9,373 bases of DNA from DATKZS01 sp035527835 [NCBI: bacterium] (lineage in GTDB: Bacteria > RBG-13-61-14), in the NCBI GenBank assembly GCA_035527835.1, contig DATKZS010000010.1:1-9373 (forward strand), in the 5' to 3' direction. Numbering within the stretch: position 1 is the stretch's first letter; every line of letters begins with the position of its first letter. Made by a program: the position numbers and the translations under genes. This document shows, in pieces, positions 544-7,135 of the stretch. Below the pieces are notes generated by a model. It did not search any database and was not told the DNA's origin. It saw nothing but the letters and a program-made list of their open reading frames with translations.

Positions 544-1422
544 TCACCGTCCGGTGGCGAGGTCGTTTCCCCAGAATGCTCCGATCAGCGTGTACAGGAG
601 CTGGGCCGCGAGGTAGTCGGGGTGGAAAAGCCCGGGGATGGGCGCGAGCTCGACCATGTCCATGCCGATGACCTCTTTGCCCGAGGCGGCGAGGGCGAGG
701 GCAAGGTCCAGGATGTGGTGATAGGAGATGCCTCCGGGCTCGGGGGTCCCGGTGGCGGGCATCTCGGAGGGGTCGAGACAGTCGAGGTCGAGGGTGAGGT
801 AAACATGGTCGGAGAGCGCGCCGATCACGCTCTCCACCCAGCCGCCGCCGCGGACGATGGCGCGGGCGGAAATGAAGTCGCGGCGCTCCGCGTCGAGCCA
901 TTGCCGTTCCTCGATGCTGAGCGCTCGGACGCCGGCCTGGACGAATTTCGCGCCGAGCTCGGCGATGCGGCGCATGACGCAGGCGTGGGAGAAGCGCGAT
1001 CCCCCGTACTCGTCGCGGAGGTCGGCGTGGGCATCGAGCTGAAGCACGGCAAGGTCCGGCCAGCGCTCGAGGCAGGCGCTCACCGCGCCCAGGCTGAGCG
1101 AATGCTCGCCGCCGACCACCACCGGCCGGCGCAGGGTCTCCAGCTCCGGGGCCACCGCGGCCTTGACCTTGAGCGCCGCCTGCCACGGGTCAGCCGGCAT
1201 CACCAGCGGCTCCCGGCCGTGGATCCCTAACTTGAACGTCTCGCGGCCCAGGATGGAATCGTAGAACTCGATGTAGGGCGACGCGGCGAGCATGGCGGCG
1301 GGCGCGTTGGCCGTGCCCTTGCCCCAGCTCACCGTGCCCTCGTAAGGCGCGGGTATGATCACGGCCCGGGCATGGCCGTAATCGCAATAAGGAGCGGGGA
1401 TGCCGAACCATGTCAAGGGCAT
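544..1422 (-). CDS. speB: Agmatinase-type ureohydrolase
   Basis: A ureohydrolase (arginase/agmatinase family) of 292 residues, normal length for the family. Numbered from the ATG at 1422, the manganese-binding signatures are all present: GGEHS (His107), DAHAD (Asp130, His132, Asp134) and DLDCLDP (Asp212, Asp214), followed by GTPEPGG (Glu228). The SHACVMRR segment is common in bacterial agmatinases. The expected reaction is agmatine plus water to putrescine plus urea in the cytoplasm. The upstream gene makes agmatine, which favours agmatinase over arginase, formiminoglutamase or guanidinobutyrase, though substrate cannot be proven from sequence. The ATG at 1422 is preferred because AGGTGA lies 5 bases before it. 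An in-frame GTG at 1431 is part of that ribosome binding site and would add three residues. It is separated from the decarboxylase gene by about 240 bases containing a repeat, so cotranscription is likely but not certain. Confidence 0.94.
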   Translation of the reverse strand: MPLTWFGIPAPYCDYGHARAVIIPAPYEGTVSWGKGTANAPAAMLAASPYIEFYDSILGRETFKLGIHGREPLVMPADPWQAALKVKAAVAPELETLRRPVVVGGEHSLSLGAVSACLERWPDLAVLQLDAHADLRDEYGGSRFSHACVMRRIAELGAKFVQAGVRALSIEERQWLDAERRDFISARAIVRGGGWVESVIGALSDHVYLTLDLDCLDPSEMPATGTPEPGGISYHHILDLALALAASGKEVIGMDMVELAPIPGLFHPDYLAAQLLYTLIGAFWGNDLATGR

Positions 1423-1446
1423 TGCGTTCACCTGCTCAGAAAATAA

Positions 1447-1540
1447 TTTTTGACAGGATTAACGGGATGAACAGGATGAAAGAAAATAAACGTCTCCTCA
1501 CTCCGGGAAATCCAGTTAATCCTGTTAATCCTGTCAAAAA
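1447..1540. repeat. Long inverted repeat of AGGAT-type units between pdaD and speB
   Basis: Arms 1447-1463 and 1524-1540 are perfect 17-base inverted repeats (core GACAGGATTAAC / GTTAATCCTGTC). The pairing continues imperfectly to 30 bases per arm (1447-1476 and 1511-1540, with 3 mismatches in the added 13). Each arm is a run of 9-base units such as GATTAACGG, GATGAACAG and GATGAAAG. The loop is about 34 bases. It lies between the end of the decarboxylase gene and the start of the agmatinase gene, 24 bases upstream of the latter. On a shared transcript it would form a strong hairpin just before the agmatinase ribosome binding site. It matches the element at 430-506 in design. Confidence 0.82.
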
Positions 1541-1665
1541 CCTTTTCATTATTTCAGGGCGCGGCTCGCGGCATGTGGAGCTGTTTAGAAGATAGTGGCG
1601 AGCAACGGGCAACGCGGAGGACGGGAGAATTCCCTCGATCCGCGCTCCTCGCTTCTCGATCCTCT

Positions 1666-2214
1666 TCACTCGATAGGGATGAACACGGCCGCCGCGAGGA
1701 CGGTGGTCCATTTGCCGCCCTTGTCGCCGCGGGCGGTCTGGGTGATCCCGCGCGAGCTCACGATCTGCCCGCTCATGCGGTAGATCTGCTTGCGCTCGTC
1801 CCAGCACTTGTCGGGATCAAAGGGGATGCCCAGCGTGGTCGCGAGCATGGTGGCCGCCAGGTCCTCCGCGTAGTCCCCCGCCACCTGCTTCTTCTCGCCG
1901 AACGAATGGTGCTCCGAGATGTAGCCGTAGGTCGAGCGGTCCGACGGATAGGCCATGCCCACGGAGGCCGCCAACTGCCGGCCCGGCTCGTTCGACGAGT
2001 TTTGCGACATGACGCAATAGGTGATCTGGCCCGGATTCAGCTTGCTGATGCCGCGTTCCGTGGTGATGATCCGGCAATTGGGGGGAAGGATGCTGGACAC
2101 GTAAACGAGGTTGAGCTTGGCGATCTTGGCGTGGCGCAACGCCATCTCGAAGCTCTGGAGCTTGTCTTTATGGACGCCCACCCCCTTCGTGAAGAACACT
2201 TCTTTCGGGATCAA
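1666..2214 (-). CDS. pdaD: Pyruvoyl-dependent arginine decarboxylase
   Basis: This is a PvlArgDC family enzyme: a proenzyme that cleaves itself at a Ser-Ser bond, turning the second serine into a pyruvoyl cofactor that decarboxylates arginine to agmatine. Numbered from the TTG at 2214 (182 residues), the cleavage site is VSS-ILPPN (Ser40/Ser41) and the conserved catalytic-type glutamate is in YISEHH (Glu101). The N-terminal [21 protein letters not shown] is typical of the family. The TTG is chosen because GGAGGAGG sits 9 bases upstream and the protein then begins exactly at the conserved IPKEVFF segment. A GTG at 2262 would add 16 non-conserved residues without a good ribosome binding site. 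An ATG lying between the GGAGGAGG and the TTG is out of frame. With the downstream agmatinase it forms an arginine-to-putrescine route. A histidine decarboxylase role is unlikely given the family signatures. Confidence 0.93.
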
Positions 2215-2298
2215 TTTCCATGCCCTCCTCCAAAGTGGTTTATGATCTTGAGCGGCCGCCACGCCCTGCCGGTGCGATGGCCGCCTCCTGGGTTCGTA

Positions 2299-2451: not shown

Positions 2452-4185
2452 TTAATATAAGGCCCCCAGGGCGATGAACCTTCCGATGACCACCCAGATG
2501 GGGATGCTGAAGATGAGGATCCAGAACAGGATTTTGAGGAGCTTGAGGCGGCGGCTGAGATACCGGCTTTCCAGAGTGTTGTGGACCATGACCTCGAGGG
2601 CCTCGGGGGAGGCGCAACTGGGCAGGATGGTATAGGCGCCGAGGCGCAAGAGGCCCAGGGCCGCGGGGCTTTCCGCGGAATCGGCCAGGACCAGGATGGT
2701 GACCTCCGGGCTCAGGATCTTGGTCCGGACCACCACGTCGGAAATTTCCTTGCCGTACTTCGATTCCTCGACGATCACGGCCCCCAGCTCGCCCCGCACG
2801 ATGGCCTCGCTGACGCTCTCCATGGAATCCGCCAGCACCGGCTCGTGGCCCAGGTTTTTCAAGAGGGAGCCCATGACCTCGCGCCAGTATTCGGAGGCCA
2901 GGACCAATACCCTTTCCGTCCGCTGCTCCTCGGCCCGGGTGAGCTTGTCCAGGAGATTGAACGTGAGAGCCGGCGGGTCATACTTCTTCTTGTCTTCCAG
3001 GGCCGGGGCAGGCTCCGCGCGGCCCGGCAACGGGACCGGCACTTCCCGGGCGGCGCCGCCCGCGCCCGCGGCGTTATTGCCGTGGTAGCCGATCCATTCC
3101 TTATAAGCATTTACGGCCTGGAGCGCGGCGGCCAACTGCTCCTCCAAATAGCGCATGGCCAGCAGCACGAAACTGATGAGCAGGGCCAGGAGACCCAGGG
3201 TGAGCAGGCGGTAGGACTGAGTGAGCCGGCTGATCACCAGTGCGAACATGCCGAAGGCCAGGCTGAAAAAATATATGACCAGCACGGTCTGTTTGTCCGT
3301 GAGCCCGATGGCCAGGAACCGGTGATGGATGTGCCGCGCGTCGCCCTGGAAAGGGTGCTTGCCCTGCGACAGCCGGCGCAGGAAGGCCATGGCCGTGTCC
3401 AGGATGGGGATGCCCAACACCAAAAGGGGGAAAAGCAGCGTGACCACCGCCGTCCCCTTCATGGTCTGGGTCATGGACAAAACCGCCAGGATGAAGCCCA
3501 GGAACATGCTCCCCGCGTCCCCCATGAAGATGCGCGCCGGAGGGAAATTATAGCGCAGGAAACCGAAACACACCCCGGACAGCCCCAGCGCGAGAAGTCC
3601 GCTGGAAGGCTCGCCGTTGACCACCTGCATCAGGAAGAGGAAAAAACTGGAGATGCACACCACCCCCGCGGCCAGGCCGTCAAGCCCGTCAATCAGGTTG
3701 ATCGCGTTGATCAGCAATACCGTCCATAATATCGTGACCGGCACCGTCAAGGGGCCGAACTCGATTATTCTGCCGAAGGGATGGCCGATCGCCGGAATGC
3801 TGACGTCCGTGAAAAGGCAAAAAATCAGGGCCGCGAAGATCTGGATGGGGAACTTGATCCAGGCCGACAGTCCCTTGATGTCGTCGTACACGCCCGCCGC
3901 CACCAGGATCACCGAGCAAAGCAGACCGACCGGAAGCCAGGCCGGACACGATTCGGGGAACAAGAGGCACCGGCCGAGGCCATAAACCGCGAAGGCCAGG
4001 AACATCCCGACCCCGCCCAGGTACGGGACCGGACGCTTGTGGATCTTGCGCTTGTCCGGCTGGTCGAAAATCTTGAGACGCACCGCGACCCGCCGGGCCA
4101 GGTACGTGAAACCGATGCTCAGCAGGAAGGCCGCCGCGAACAGGCCCGCCAACAAAAAAATCGTTATGAAAACGCCATAGCTCAT
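2452..4185 (-). CDS. WecA/TagO-type phosphoglycosyl transferase fused to a pseudo-receiver domain and a C-terminal membrane helix
   Basis: Residues 1-345 of 577 form a polytopic membrane enzyme of the MraY/WecA superfamily. Such enzymes move a sugar-1-phosphate from a UDP-sugar to undecaprenyl phosphate, starting cell-surface polysaccharide synthesis. The catalytic signatures are clear: YDD (Asp101-102), NLIDGLDG (163-170), FMGDAGS (220-226) and HIHHR (285-289). The last is typical of the WecA/TagO branch rather than MraY, so UDP-GlcNAc or a similar amino sugar is the likely donor. WecA-type proteins are usually about 350-380 residues. Here a helical stretch and a Pro/Ala/Gly-rich linker (370-405) lead to a receiver-like fold (about 423-540), then a hydrophobic helix (about 548-575). 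The receiver lacks its key residues: Glu473 replaces the phosphoacceptor Asp, and the Thr/Ser and Lys positions are also lost. The ATG at 4185 is chosen because the protein then starts just before the first membrane helix. A GTG at 4245 would add 20 residues. Ribosome binding sites are weak for both. Confidence 0.92.
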   Translation of the reverse strand: MSYGVFITIFLLAGLFAAAFLLSIGFTYLARRVAVRLKIFDQPDKRKIHKRPVPYLGGVGMFLAFAVYGLGRCLLFPESCPAWLPVGLLCSVILVAAGVYDDIKGLSAWIKFPIQIFAALIFCLFTDVSIPAIGHPFGRIIEFGPLTVPVTILWTVLLINAINLIDGLDGLAAGVVCISSFFLFLMQVVNGEPSSGLLALGLSGVCFGFLRYNFPPARIFMGDAGSMFLGFILAVLSMTQTMKGTAVVTLLFPLLVLGIPILDTAMAFLRRLSQGKHPFQGDARHIHHRFLAIGLTDKQTVLVIYFFSLAFGMFALVISRLTQSYRLLTLGLLALLISFVLLAMRYLEEQLAAALQAVNAYKEWIGYHGNNAAGAGGAAREVPVPLPGRAEPAPALEDKKKYDPPALTFNLLDKLTRAEEQRTERVLVLASEYWREVMGSLLKNLGHEPVLADSMESVSEAIVRGELGAVIVEESKYGKEISDVVVRTKILSPEVTILVLADSAESPAALGLLRLGAYTILPSCASPEALEVMVHNTLESRYLSRRLKLLKILFWILIFSIPIWVVIGRFIALGALY

Positions 4186-4470: not shown

Positions 4471-6462
4471 ATGGACCATTTCGAATTGATCAGCTCCTTC
4501 CGTCCCGCCGGCGATCAGCCCCGGGCCATCGCCGAGCTGGTGAGCAACCTGAACCGAGGATTACCCCACCAGGTCCTCCTCGGCGTGACCGGATCGGGCA
4601 AGACCTTTACCATGGCCAACGTGATGGCGGAGGTCAACCGGCCCGCCCTGGTGCTCGCCCACAACAAGACCCTGGCCGCCCAGCTCTACGCCGAGTTCAA
4701 GGAGCTGTTCCCCAGGAACGCCGTCGAGTATTTCGTGTCCTATTACGATTACTATCAGCCCGAGGCCTACATCCCGTCCTCCGACACCTACATCGAGAAG
4801 GACAGCGCGATCAACGAGGAGATAGACAAGATGCGCCACAGCGCCACCCGCGCCGTGCTCGAGCGCCGGGACGTGGTCGTGGTGGCATCCATCTCCTGCA
4901 TCTACGGCATCGGCTCGCCCGAGGCCTACCACGGCCTCATGCTCCGCCTGTTCCAGGGACAGGAGGCCTCGCGCGACGCCGTACTGGAAAAGCTGGTCTC
5001 GATCCTTTACGAGCGAAACGACGTGGACTTCCACCGCGGGACCTTCCGCGTGCGCGGCGACGTGGTCGAGGTCTTTCCGGCCCACGAGAGCGACAAGGCC
5101 ATCCGCCTCGAGTTCTTCGGCGACACCGTGGAAGCGATCTCCGAGATAGACCCGCTGCGCGGCAAGGTCATCCGCCGGCTTCCCGACGCGGCCATCTACC
5201 CGAGCTCCCATTACGTCACCTATCAGGACACCCTCGAACGCGCGCTGGTCACGATCGAGCTCGAGCTCAACGAGCGGCTCAACGAGCTCCACGCCCAGAA
5301 CAAGCTGGTCGAGGCCCAGCGCCTGGAGCAGCGCACCCGCTACGACCTGGAGATGATGAAAGAGATGGGATTCTGCTCCGGCATCGAGAACTACTCCCGC
5401 CACTTGACCGGCCGCGCCCCCGGCGAGGCCCCCTACACCCTGATTGACTACTTCCCCGACGACTTCATCATGTTCATTGACGAGTCGCACCAGTCCATTC
5501 CGCAGGCCGGAGGCATGTACCGCGGCGACCGCTCCCGCAAGGAGACCCTGGTCGAGTTCGGCTTCCGCTTGAAAAGCGCGCTGGACAACCGGCCCCTCAA
5601 GTTCGAGGAGTTCGAGGCCAAGCTCAAGCAAGCCATTTACGTCTCGGCCACCCCCGCGGACTACGAGCTGAAAAAGAGCGGCGGCCTGGTGGCCGAGCAG
5701 ATCATCCGGCCCACCGGCCTTATTGACCCGAGGATCGAGGTCAGGCCCGCCGGCGACCAGGTGGATGACCTCTACTCCGAAATCCTGGAGCGCGTCAATA
5801 AAAAGGACAAGGTCCTGGTCACCACCTTGACCAAGCGCATGGCCGAGGACCTCACCCAGTATTACCAGGACCTCGGACTCCGCGTCGAGTACCTCCACTC
5901 CGACATCCATACCCTCGAGCGCTATGACATCATCCGCAACCTGCGCCTCGACAAGTTCGACGTGCTCGTCGGCATCAACCTCCTCCGGGAGGGACTGGAC
6001 ATCCCCGAGGTCGCCCTCGTCGCCATCCTCGACGCCGACAAGGAGGGCTTCCTCCGCGGCGAGCGCGCGCTCATCCAGACCGTGGGACGAGCCGCCCGCA
6101 ACGTGAACGGAACCGTCATCCTCTACGCCGACCGCGTCACCCGCTCCATGGAAGTCTGCATGAACGAGACCAACCGCCGCCGCAAAATCCAGGAAGAGTA
6201 CAACCGCGAGCACGGCATCACCCCCGCCTCCATCAAGAAGAACATCTCGGAAATCCGCCGGAGCGTGTACGAGCGCGACTACGTCACCATCGAGCCCGAG
6301 GAGGATCTGCCCGCGGTCAAGGACGCCGGTGAGCTCGAGCGCATGATCGCCGAGCTCCGCGCCGAGATGAGAAAGGCCGCCAAGGATCTCCAGTTCGAGC
6401 GCGCCGCCTCACTGCGCGACAAGATCAAGGACCTGGAGAAGATGGACATATTCCTGGGATGA
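4471..6462 (+). CDS. uvrB: Excinuclease ABC subunit B (UvrB)
   Basis: UvrB is the damage-verifying helicase-like subunit of nucleotide excision repair. It receives DNA from UvrA, opens it locally and recruits UvrC for incision. At 663 residues it is of normal length. Visible signatures are the Walker A motif GVTGSGKT (38-45), the beta-hairpin region [12 protein letters not shown] (91-102) that probes the damaged strand, and the DESH box (337-340). Further on are [10 protein letters not shown], the helicase motifs [13 protein letters not shown] and QTVGRAARN, and a C-terminal UVR domain (about 625-660) that contacts UvrC. All key residues appear intact. The ATG at 4471 has AAGG 7 bases upstream and begins the usual N-terminal F-x-L-x-S-x-(F/Y)-x-P-x-G-D-Q-P pattern. 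The gene is divergent from the glycosyl carrier gene. A toxin-antitoxin pair follows after 83 bases. Confidence 0.99.
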
Positions 6463-6545: not shown

Positions 6546-6752
6546 ATGCCCAAAGTTACCGTTTCCCCGAAGTATCAGGTGGTGATTCCGCGGGAAGCCC
6601 GCGAGGCCATGGGGATCGCCCCGGGTGAGAAGCTTGAGGTCTTTCAATACGGAAATCGCCTGGAATACGTCCCGGTACGGCGGATGCGCGAGCTGCGCGG
6701 ATTCCTCAAAGGCCTGGATCCGGACGTGAAACGCGACAAGGACCGCATATGA
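6546..6752 (+). CDS. vapB: AbrB/MazE-fold antitoxin (VapB type)
   Basis: A 68-residue protein whose first 45 residues form a SpoVT-AbrB/MazE DNA-binding domain: KVTVSPKYQVVIPREAREAMGI, then GEKLEVF and a final beta strand. These proteins dimerise into a swapped-hairpin barrel, bind the operon promoter and, through a flexible C-terminal tail, neutralise the partner toxin. The tail here (about 46-68) is charged and contains LRGFLKGLD, a plausible toxin-binding segment. The start is clear: AAGGAGG lies 5 bases before the ATG. Its last four bases overlap the toxin start (ATGA, 6749-6752), so translation is probably coupled. The gene stands 83 bases after uvrB with its own candidate promoter. It is a VapB because the partner is a PIN-domain toxin and not a MazF. 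Confidence 0.9.
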   Translation: MPKVTVSPKYQVVIPREAREAMGIAPGEKLEVFQYGNRLEYVPVRRMRELRGFLKGLDPDVKRDKDRI

Positions 6753-7135
6753 ACCTGGTGGATTCCTGCGGATGGCTCGAATACTTCGCTGACGGACCTG
6801 ATGCCGCTTTTTTCGCGCCGCCTCTCGAGCACACCGCCGATTTGCTGGTGCCTTCAATCTGTGTCCTCGAAGTGTTCAAGCGCGTTCTGACCGAACGCGG
6901 GGAAGGCCCGGCCTTGCAGGCCGCGGCCGCCATGCAGCAGGGCCTTATCGCCGATCTCGACCTCCCCACCGCCCTGGCCGCGGCCGGCATCGGAAATAGC
7001 TTCGGCCTTCCGCTGGCCGACAGCGTCATCCTCGCCACCGCCCGCCGCTACAAAGCCGTCATCTGGACCCAGGACTCACACTTCAAGAACATCCAGGGCG
7101 TCAAGTACAGGGAAAAAACCCGGAAGAAAAAGTAA
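6749..7135 (+). CDS. vapC: PIN-domain ribonuclease toxin (VapC type)
   Basis: A 128-residue PIN-domain protein. The four acidic residues expected to bind the catalytic metal are present: Asp5 (VDSCGWLEYF), Glu41 (CVLEVFKR), Asp91 (LPLADSVILATA) and Asp109 (WTQDSHF). VapC toxins are Mg-dependent ribonucleases that cut tRNA or rRNA and stop growth when free of antitoxin. The target here cannot be read from sequence. The full active site and full length argue for a working toxin, not a relic. AAGGA within the end of the antitoxin gene, 6 bases upstream, serves as ribosome binding site. The C-terminus is strongly basic (REKTRKKK), which could help RNA binding. The helicase gene begins 39 bases after its stop without a visible terminator, so read-through is possible. 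Confidence 0.94.
   Translation: MNLVDSCGWLEYFADGPDAAFFAPPLEHTADLLVPSICVLEVFKRVLTERGEGPALQAAAAMQQGLIADLDLPTALAAAGIGNSFGLPLADSVILATARRYKAVIWTQDSHFKNIQGVKYREKTRKKK

What the first reader, a model, noticed from the sequence alone, without database searches (positions are those of the whole stretch)
2452..4185. Glycosyl carrier enzyme fused to a degenerate response-regulator receiver and a last membrane helix
Residues 1-345 carry all WecA/TagO active-site motifs. The added 230 residues contain a linker, a receiver-like alternating alpha/beta stretch (RVLVLAS..., GAVIVEES..., VTILVLADS..., LGAYTILPS...) and a membrane helix. In the receiver the phosphoacceptor Asp is Glu473, the switch Thr/Ser position is Ala501, and the conserved Lys is replaced near Pro522-Ser523. 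A Glu at the acceptor site can mimic a locked phosphorylated state. This suggests a fixed protein-interaction or scaffold module attached to the first step of surface polysaccharide synthesis, perhaps to recruit a partner or sense a non-phosphate signal. WecA-type enzymes usually end after the membrane core.
Basis: partly seen in the sequence, partly recalled or inferred. Interest (0 to 1): 0.68.

Follow-up and report, generated by a model that had tools for sequence, protein, structure and literature searches.

The report
Glycan-starting enzyme fused to membrane receiver
A bacterial enzyme of the kind that starts surface-sugar synthesis carries at its end a worn-out signalling switch plus a membrane anchor; in some other bacteria an intact version of that anchored switch is made by the very next gene, which suggests that signalling proteins can act directly on this first step.

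Summary
The gene is real and lies on the minus strand (4185 to 2452, 577 aa). Residues 1-345 are a WecA/MraY-type phosphoglycosyl transferase. The tail is predicted as a receiver (pLDDT 90.7; Z 19 to NtrC1) whose last helix runs on into a membrane helix. New: the tail resembles a family of separate receivers with a C-terminal membrane anchor ("Rec-TM", my name), found in 9 of 395, 43 of 82 and 4 of 217 genomes of three phyla. Of 40 distinct separate copies read, 38 keep the active site; the other two lie beside a capD-type gene. In three genomes Rec-TM lies just downstream of an initiating transferase gene, twice wecA with an ATGA overlap. The window protein therefore looks like a fusion of two partners. 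Myxococcus EpsW~P activating EpsZ is the published precedent, in another transferase superfamily. Only this one fused sequence was found and its host lineage is unknown. Fold and fusion are well supported; function is inferred: a built-in, phosphorylation-independent regulatory or assembly subunit. The locked phospho-mimic remains possible but weakened.

The parts
2452..4185 (-). whole gene: polytopic phosphoglycosyl transferase - linker - pseudo-receiver - membrane helix, 577 aa
   Evidence: open frame, translation; third-position GC even along the gene
3151..4185 (-). residues 1-345, WecA/MraY-type core (ten hydrophobic helices seen by a simple hydropathy scan)
   Evidence: Glycos_transf_4 E 1.2e-43; MraY structures E 4.9e-10
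3880..3885 (-). Asp101-Asp102, catalytic motif by recall
3676..3699 (-). NLIDGLDG motif, residues 163-170
3508..3525 (-). MGDAGS motif, residues 221-226
3319..3333 (-). HIHHR motif, residues 285-289; two hydrophobic helices (300-318, 326-344) follow it
2944..3150 (-). residues 346-414, linker rich in Ala, Gly and Pro with a charged stretch
   Evidence: translation
2557..2919 (-). residues 423-543, pseudo-receiver, (beta-alpha)5
   Evidence: AlphaFold2, Foldseek and VIA-align 2, window-free profile
2893..2898 (-). Ala430-Ser431 in place of the metal-binding acidic pair
2767..2769 (-). Glu473 in place of the phosphoacceptor Asp
2683..2685 (-). Ala501 in place of the switch Thr/Ser
2617..2619 (-). 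Ser523 in place of the conserved Lys
2467..2541 (-). residues 549-573, last membrane helix with the Rec-TM pattern (SIPIW..IG), continuous with receiver helix 5 in the model
   Evidence: helix 527-576; composition-corrected pattern scan 12.3 bits at 550-573

Best explanation
A WecA-type initiating phosphoglycosyl transferase has been fused to a diverged, phosphorylation-dead member of a family of membrane-anchored receivers (Rec-TM). The receiver sits on the cytoplasmic side next to the active-site loops, because two membrane helices follow the HIHHR loop (cytoplasmic by recall), and it is tied to the membrane by a helix that continues receiver helix 5. In relatives the partners are two neighbouring genes and the receiver keeps its active site, so there a kinase could switch it. 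Most likely the fused pseudo-receiver is a permanent regulatory or assembly subunit: through its receiver surface and its membrane helix it stabilises the active (perhaps dimeric) state of the transferase or docks a partner, without phosphorylation. Shown computationally: fold, loss of active-site residues, resemblance to Rec-TM, gene adjacency elsewhere. Inferred: cytoplasmic placement, contact with the transferase, any effect on activity.
For: Window-free profile of 10 intact Rec-TM: 46.5 bits over 418-572, best of 1000 shuffles 4.8 bits; 12 rows including two degenerate ones: 59.8 bits, best shuffle 5.7. Composition-corrected scan of the membrane helix, built from 38 intact rows: 12.3 bits at the expected place; the best of 9499 other open frames made of real letters scores 3.8, masked runs of X up to 5.3. 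Receiver fold, pLDDT 90.7, helix 527-576 unbroken; Z 19.1, rmsd 2.0 to 1zy2. Rec-TM is a sharp class: in 395 genomes tail matches reach position 60-61 of 61 in 9 genomes (11 genes), while the other listed hits stop at about 30-40. Gene order: wecA then Rec-TM with ATGA overlap in G351 and G397, a PF02397 sugar transferase then Rec-TM in G119. Active site kept in 38 of 40 distinct separate copies. Precedent: EpsW~P stimulates the initiating transferase EpsZ by direct interaction (PMC12802240: abstract, passages and sections 11-12 seen).
Against: One fused sequence only; no homologue with the same order. Its closest whole-tail identity is 27%, to an ordinary NtrC-type receiver, on a very long branch (5.58), and its grouping with the two degenerate Rec-TM is weak (81/70). 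HMMER with the membrane helix alone, bias-corrected, gives 1.6 bits, rank 99, with the 10-row profile, and did not report it with the 38-row profile. The receiver model leans on an alignment of true receivers; without it pLDDT is 57.9. Pfam finds no receiver in the window. No polysaccharide gene other than this one was recognised in the window. G397 was found through its wecA neighbour, so the unbiased count of transferase neighbours is 2 of 8 genomes. None of 25 Rec-TM loci of the two other phyla has such a neighbour. No interaction or activity was tested.
Confidence: 0.55

Rival explanations
1. Locked phospho-mimic: Glu473 holds the receiver in the active state, so the transferase is always on.
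For: Glu at the acceptor and Ala in the acidic pair recall the PhoB D10A/D53E constitutively active receiver, 2jb9, and HupR D55E, 2vuh (titles).
Against: Second acidic residue, Thr, Lys and the K-3 aromatic are lost too, so the usual Y-T switch (PMC12632262 section 7) is not available. The two other degenerate Rec-TM have Cys, not Glu, at the acceptor.
Confidence: 0.2
2. Independent fusion: an ordinary NtrC-type receiver plus an unrelated membrane helix joined WecA; likeness to Rec-TM is convergence.
For: Highest identity (27%) is to an NtrC-type receiver; long branch; membrane helix alone weak in HMMER.
Against: The match to Rec-TM profiles runs through the receiver into the helix without a break, and the helix has the family's pattern beyond hydrophobicity.
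Confidence: 0.15
3. Vestige: the tail is a decaying remnant without function.
For: All five phosphotransfer positions lost; very long branch.
Against: Frame open, third-position GC even; fold and membrane-helix pattern kept.
Confidence: 0.15
4. Ligand sensor: the pseudo-receiver binds a small molecule, as reported for a c-di-GMP-binding pseudo-receiver in ShkA.
For: PMC7010744 (search listing and start of abstract only).
Against: No ligand motif was tested or seen here; nothing specific points to it.
Confidence: 0.08

Closest known systems
EpsW/EpsZ of Myxococcus xanthus (PMC12802240)
   Same: A receiver acts after translation on the enzyme that starts polysaccharide synthesis; both are membrane-side partners.
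   Different: EpsZ is a monotopic transferase, EpsW a separate, soluble, phosphorylated receiver; here a polytopic transferase is fused to a dead, membrane-anchored receiver.
Small monotopic phosphoglycosyl transferases with receiver domains (O'Toole 2021, known here only from the discussion of PMC12802240; paper not held)
   Same: An initiating transferase carrying a receiver in one chain.
   Different: Another transferase superfamily; no statement seen about a membrane helix after the receiver or about loss of its active site.
WecA / TagO / MraY polytopic transferases (PF00953, TIGR02380)
   Same: Core domain, motifs, membrane helices.
   Different: The receiver and the extra membrane helix; score below the TIGR02380 cut-off (162 of 326 bits).
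Pseudo-receivers (review PMC12632262)
   Same: Receiver fold without phosphotransfer residues; thought to act through protein contacts in several cases (section 19).
   Different: Neither 'transmembrane' nor 'glycosyl' occurs in the held text; Pfam does not recognise the window's domain.
Separate membrane-anchored receivers ('Rec-TM', named here)
   Same: Receiver followed at once by one C-terminal membrane helix of the same pattern.
   Different: Separate genes, 38 of 40 distinct copies with an intact active site.

Membership tests
Polytopic phosphoglycosyl transferase (PF00953) | Glycos_transf_4 domain above cut-off | tested here: met
   149.3 bits, cut-off 27
Polytopic phosphoglycosyl transferase (PF00953) | Asp-rich and HxHH-type motifs on the core (motifs recalled) | tested here: met
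   DD101, NLIDGLDG163, MGDAGS221, HIHHR285
WecA of enterobacterial common antigen (TIGR02380) | curated score cut-off | tested here: not met
   162.2 bits, cut-off 326.05
Response-regulator receiver | (beta-alpha)5 fold | tested here: met
   the single-sequence control was poor
Response-regulator receiver | acidic pair, Asp, Thr/Ser, Lys | tested here: not met
   0 of 5 kept: A, S, E, A, S
Response-regulator receiver | Pfam Response_reg above cut-off | tested here: not met
   no match up to E 1
Pseudo-receiver | receiver-like but lacking residues for phosphotransfer | tested here: met
Rec-TM (named here) | one profile match through the receiver into the C-terminal membrane helix | tested here: met
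   418-572, 46.5 bits
Rec-TM (named here) | membrane-helix pattern on its own | tested here: inconclusive
   pattern scan 12.3 against at most 5.3 bits; HMMER 1.6 bits
Rec-TM (named here) | grouping with the family in a tree | tested here: inconclusive
   long branch, 81/70 with the degenerate pair
EpsW/EpsZ-type regulation | monotopic transferase (PF02397) | tested here: not met
   core is PF00953
EpsW/EpsZ-type regulation | phosphorylatable receiver | tested here: not met
EpsW/EpsZ-type regulation | receiver stimulates the transferase by contact | not testable with these tools
   needs biochemistry

The most novel reading that the evidence does not exclude
There is an undescribed class of membrane-anchored receivers that, in some bacteria, are dedicated subunits of the enzymes that start polysaccharide synthesis, across both transferase superfamilies (wecA-type in G351 and G397, PF02397-type in G119). 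There kinases would switch the first step through the membrane helix; degenerate copies (beside capD-type genes, and the fused one in the window) would be permanent, kinase-independent forms.
Probability: 0.35. Interest if true: 0.78.

Novelty: new variant of a known kind. Interest (0 to 1): 0.6.

Why it matters
Undecaprenyl phosphate is shared by peptidoglycan and other surface polymers, so control of the first transferase decides who gets it. Direct control by a response regulator was shown only recently for a monotopic enzyme (PMC12802240). A fusion in the unrelated WecA superfamily, and neighbouring gene pairs with overlapping stop and start codons, would show that this logic arose more than once, and they name small, testable pairs. 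The membrane-anchored receiver itself appears to have no model of its own in the Pfam and NCBIfam scans made here.

Tried and rejected
Relatives of the whole protein by peptide patterns in genome contigs and viral contigs: none. Own genome: not held. The pyruvoyl arginine decarboxylase next door was used to find the lineage (80 loci); UvrB is closest to G001 (71%, next 64%), but its phylum holds only 3 genomes, whose WecA relatives are 31-34% identical over the core and match no further than residue 357, and whose hits with the Rec-TM tail profile stop at position 30-38. The lineage stays unknown.

Assembly artefact: rejected on codon use. The tail as one of the common WecA extensions: rejected; the 27 extensions over 60 aa fall into 17 soluble, 6 multi-helix and 4 helix-rich ones, the last CapD-like by eye. 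General polysaccharide role of Rec-TM: rejected for the family as a whole; in 25 loci of two other phyla (21 of the 43 genomes, 4 of 4) no transferase of either kind lies within the stretch read, and in the four Nitrospirota loci the neighbours look by eye like ftsK, lolA and a phosphatase. No Rec-TM match in 212 genomes of the phylum of G042 (an empty answer without a positive control). The Rec-TM searches scored only a part of the candidates in many genomes (9 to 77 per genome), so counts are lower bounds; one search drew on the same phylum. Membrane helix alone by HMMER: too weak to decide. Tree: uninformative for the window. Full-length model with WecA relatives: not made.

Literature: ten searches of an open-licence library showed no paper on a WecA-receiver fusion or on a receiver with a C-terminal membrane anchor among the listed rows; several lists were cut (50: 15 of 30, 89: 10 of 17, 93: 5 of 9), and subscription papers are mostly absent.

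Full report
1. The gene. The open frame runs on the minus strand from 4185 to 2452, 577 aa. The finding gave the span but not the strand; the plus strand of the span has stops. Neighbours by Pfam: PvlArgDC (2262-1666, minus) and an arginase-family protein (1431-544, minus) downstream, UvrB (4471-6462, plus) divergent, a PIN protein and a helicase beyond. Gaps are 189 bp to the decarboxylase and 285 bp to uvrB. No whole genome is held and the host lineage was not identified.

2. The core. Residues 86-239 match Glycos_transf_4 (E 1.2e-43) and the core matches solved MraY structures (E 4.9e-10). The score for TIGR02380 is below its cut-off, so it is WecA-like and not a certified WecA. Motifs DD101, NLIDGLDG163, MGDAGS221 and HIHHR285 are present; hydropathy shows ten helices in the core and one at 549-567. 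Two of the ten follow HIHHR, so if that loop is cytoplasmic (recalled), the tail begins in the cytoplasm.

3. The tail is a receiver without its active site. Pfam sees nothing there and NCBIfam only a faint NtrC match (E 0.053). AlphaFold2 of residues 401-577 with 14 other receivers, all from loci allowed for the job, gives pLDDT 90.7 and pTM 0.77, five strands alternating with helices, and one helix from 527 to 576 that joins receiver helix 5 to the membrane helix. Foldseek finds NtrX, HupR, NtrC1 and others (best E 3.4e-7); VIA-align 2 gives Z 19.1 with rmsd 2.0 over 124 residues to 1zy2. The control without an alignment reached only pLDDT 57.9 and recovered the pattern in part, so the model leans on the choice of alignment; the profile evidence below does not. 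At the five phosphotransfer positions the window has A, S, E, A, S; the aromatic at K-3 is Ile.

4. A family of membrane-anchored receivers. While reading the loci of WecA relatives I saw that in G397 the frame after wecA is an intact receiver with a C-terminal membrane helix, and that G034 has a similar separate gene. A profile of these two and the window (A1) brought up more in 395 genomes of the phylum of G018, whose locus is titled Syntrophus; I call it Desulfobacterota by recall. A profile of the last 61 positions (A3) separates them: in the same phylum 11 genes in 9 genomes match to position 60-61 (G339, G119, G406, G316, G359, G397 and G351 one each, G084 and G434 two each; G351 weakly, E 4.5e-11), while the other listed hits stop at about 30-40, as receivers without the anchor do. 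All of these had been used for, or found with, A1, so one search added no new gene. In the phylum of G034, 43 of 82 genomes have one match to position 59-61 (one of them, in G508, in a frame of only 77 aa); in that of G028 (Nitrospirae by its locus title), 4 of 217; in that of G001, 0 of 3; in that of G042, 0 of 212. Candidates were only partly scored in many genomes, so these are lower bounds. From the loci held, 40 distinct separate copies passed a length filter; 38 keep DD (or ED), D, T and K; the two others, in G084 and G434, do not.

5. Is the window's tail one of them? A profile of the 10 intact copies without the window scores 46.5 bits over 418-572; with the two degenerate copies added, 59.8 bits; the best of 1000 shuffles scores 4.8 and 5.7. 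Taken apart with the intact profile, receiver alone 17.4 bits, residues 543-577 alone 19.9 bits, residues 515-577 33.9 bits. A pattern scan that removes hydrophobic composition, built from 38 intact rows, gives the last helix 12.3 bits at the expected place; among 9499 other frames the best made of real letters has 3.8, and frames that are mostly masked X reach 5.3. Against: HMMER on the helix alone gives 1.6 bits, rank 99, with the 10-row profile, and did not list it with the 38-row profile; in the tree the window is a very long branch, groups only weakly (81/70) with the two degenerate copies, and has its highest identity, 27%, with an NtrC-type receiver. I take kinship with Rec-TM as likely, not proven.

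6. Genes next to Rec-TM. In G351 the order is UDP-GlcNAc 2-epimerase, wecA-type gene, Rec-TM, UDP-sugar dehydrogenase, all on one strand; the wecA stop and the Rec-TM start overlap as ATGA. In G397 the same ATGA overlap joins wecA and Rec-TM. In G119 a Bac_transf (PF02397) gene lies about 170-200 bp upstream on the same strand. In G434 a Polysacc_synt_2 gene, a degenerate Rec-TM and an intact Rec-TM follow each other, with a CpsB_CapC gene nearby; G084 has the same degenerate-intact pair behind a short Polysacc_synt_2 frame, with a CpsB_CapC gene nearby. In G359 Rec-TM overlaps by a base a HAD phosphatase, next to a GHMP kinase end and a PMT_2 gene. G316 has a UDP-sugar dehydrogenase about 2.5 kb away; in G339 and G406 no polysaccharide gene was recognised among the few neighbours tested. 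So an initiating transferase is the gene before Rec-TM in 3 of 9 genomes; as G397 was found through its wecA, the fairer count is 2 of 8. In 25 loci of the two other phyla no such neighbour was found. The link is thus a feature of some Desulfobacterota and not of the whole family.

7. How it may work. EpsW~P, a separate receiver, stimulates the initiating transferase EpsZ of Myxococcus by contact and probably by favouring its dimer; its authors mention receiver domains in small monotopic transferases (PMC12802240: abstract, passages, sections 11 and 12). The window protein would be the same logic in the polytopic superfamily, with the receiver made permanent by fusion and no longer switched by a kinase. 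Degenerate receivers are known to work through protein contacts (PMC12632262: abstract, passages, sections 7 and 19). I prefer a constitutive regulatory or assembly subunit. The locked phospho-mimic stays possible: 2jb9 (PhoB D10A/D53E) and 2vuh (HupR D55E) are real cases of Glu at the acceptor (titles), but Thr, Lys and the K-3 aromatic are gone. None of this was tested for function.

8. WecA tails in general. Of 395 genomes, 170 have a match to the window protein at E 1e-30 or better. Of 30 loci fetched from the best of these, 27 have an extension over 60 aa: 17 soluble, 6 with several helices, 4 helix-rich (one of the 6 is cut by the contig end), 3 have none. In the longer alignments listed the core match ends by about residue 366; separate matches to 416-572 are to other proteins. 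A fused WecA-receiver was not seen outside the window.

9. Verdict. Observation confirmed; interpretation partly supported; new variant of a known kind. The weak point is that the fusion is a single sequence of unknown host.

Noticed in passing
L184 5739-6876 (G434) and L157 821-1971 (G084): Tandem pair of a degenerate and an intact membrane-anchored receiver behind a capD-type gene; the degenerate one has Cys at the acceptor position. It might be a dead partner that pairs with a live one.
   Followed up: partly
L119-L148 (loci): Most close WecA relatives in this phylum carry C-terminal extensions of at least three unrelated kinds (a soluble one, GAF-like by eye; a multi-helix one; a CapD-like one by eye). 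The WecA C-terminus seems to be a common fusion point.
   Followed up: partly
L274-L277: In four Nitrospirota genomes the membrane-anchored receiver sits in a conserved order that by eye looks like ftsK, lolA, Rec-TM, with a gph-type phosphatase shortly after.
   Followed up: no
loci (L229-L248, L250-L269): One membrane-anchored receiver per genome in 43 of 82 genomes of the phylum of G034, with varied neighbours; function unknown.
   Followed up: partly
window 544-2262: Pyruvoyl-dependent arginine decarboxylase followed by an arginase-family protein: a likely polyamine operon, often paired in the loci.
   Followed up: partly
window 6749-7135: PIN-domain protein between uvrB and a helicase gene; no partner antitoxin was looked for.
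   Followed up: no
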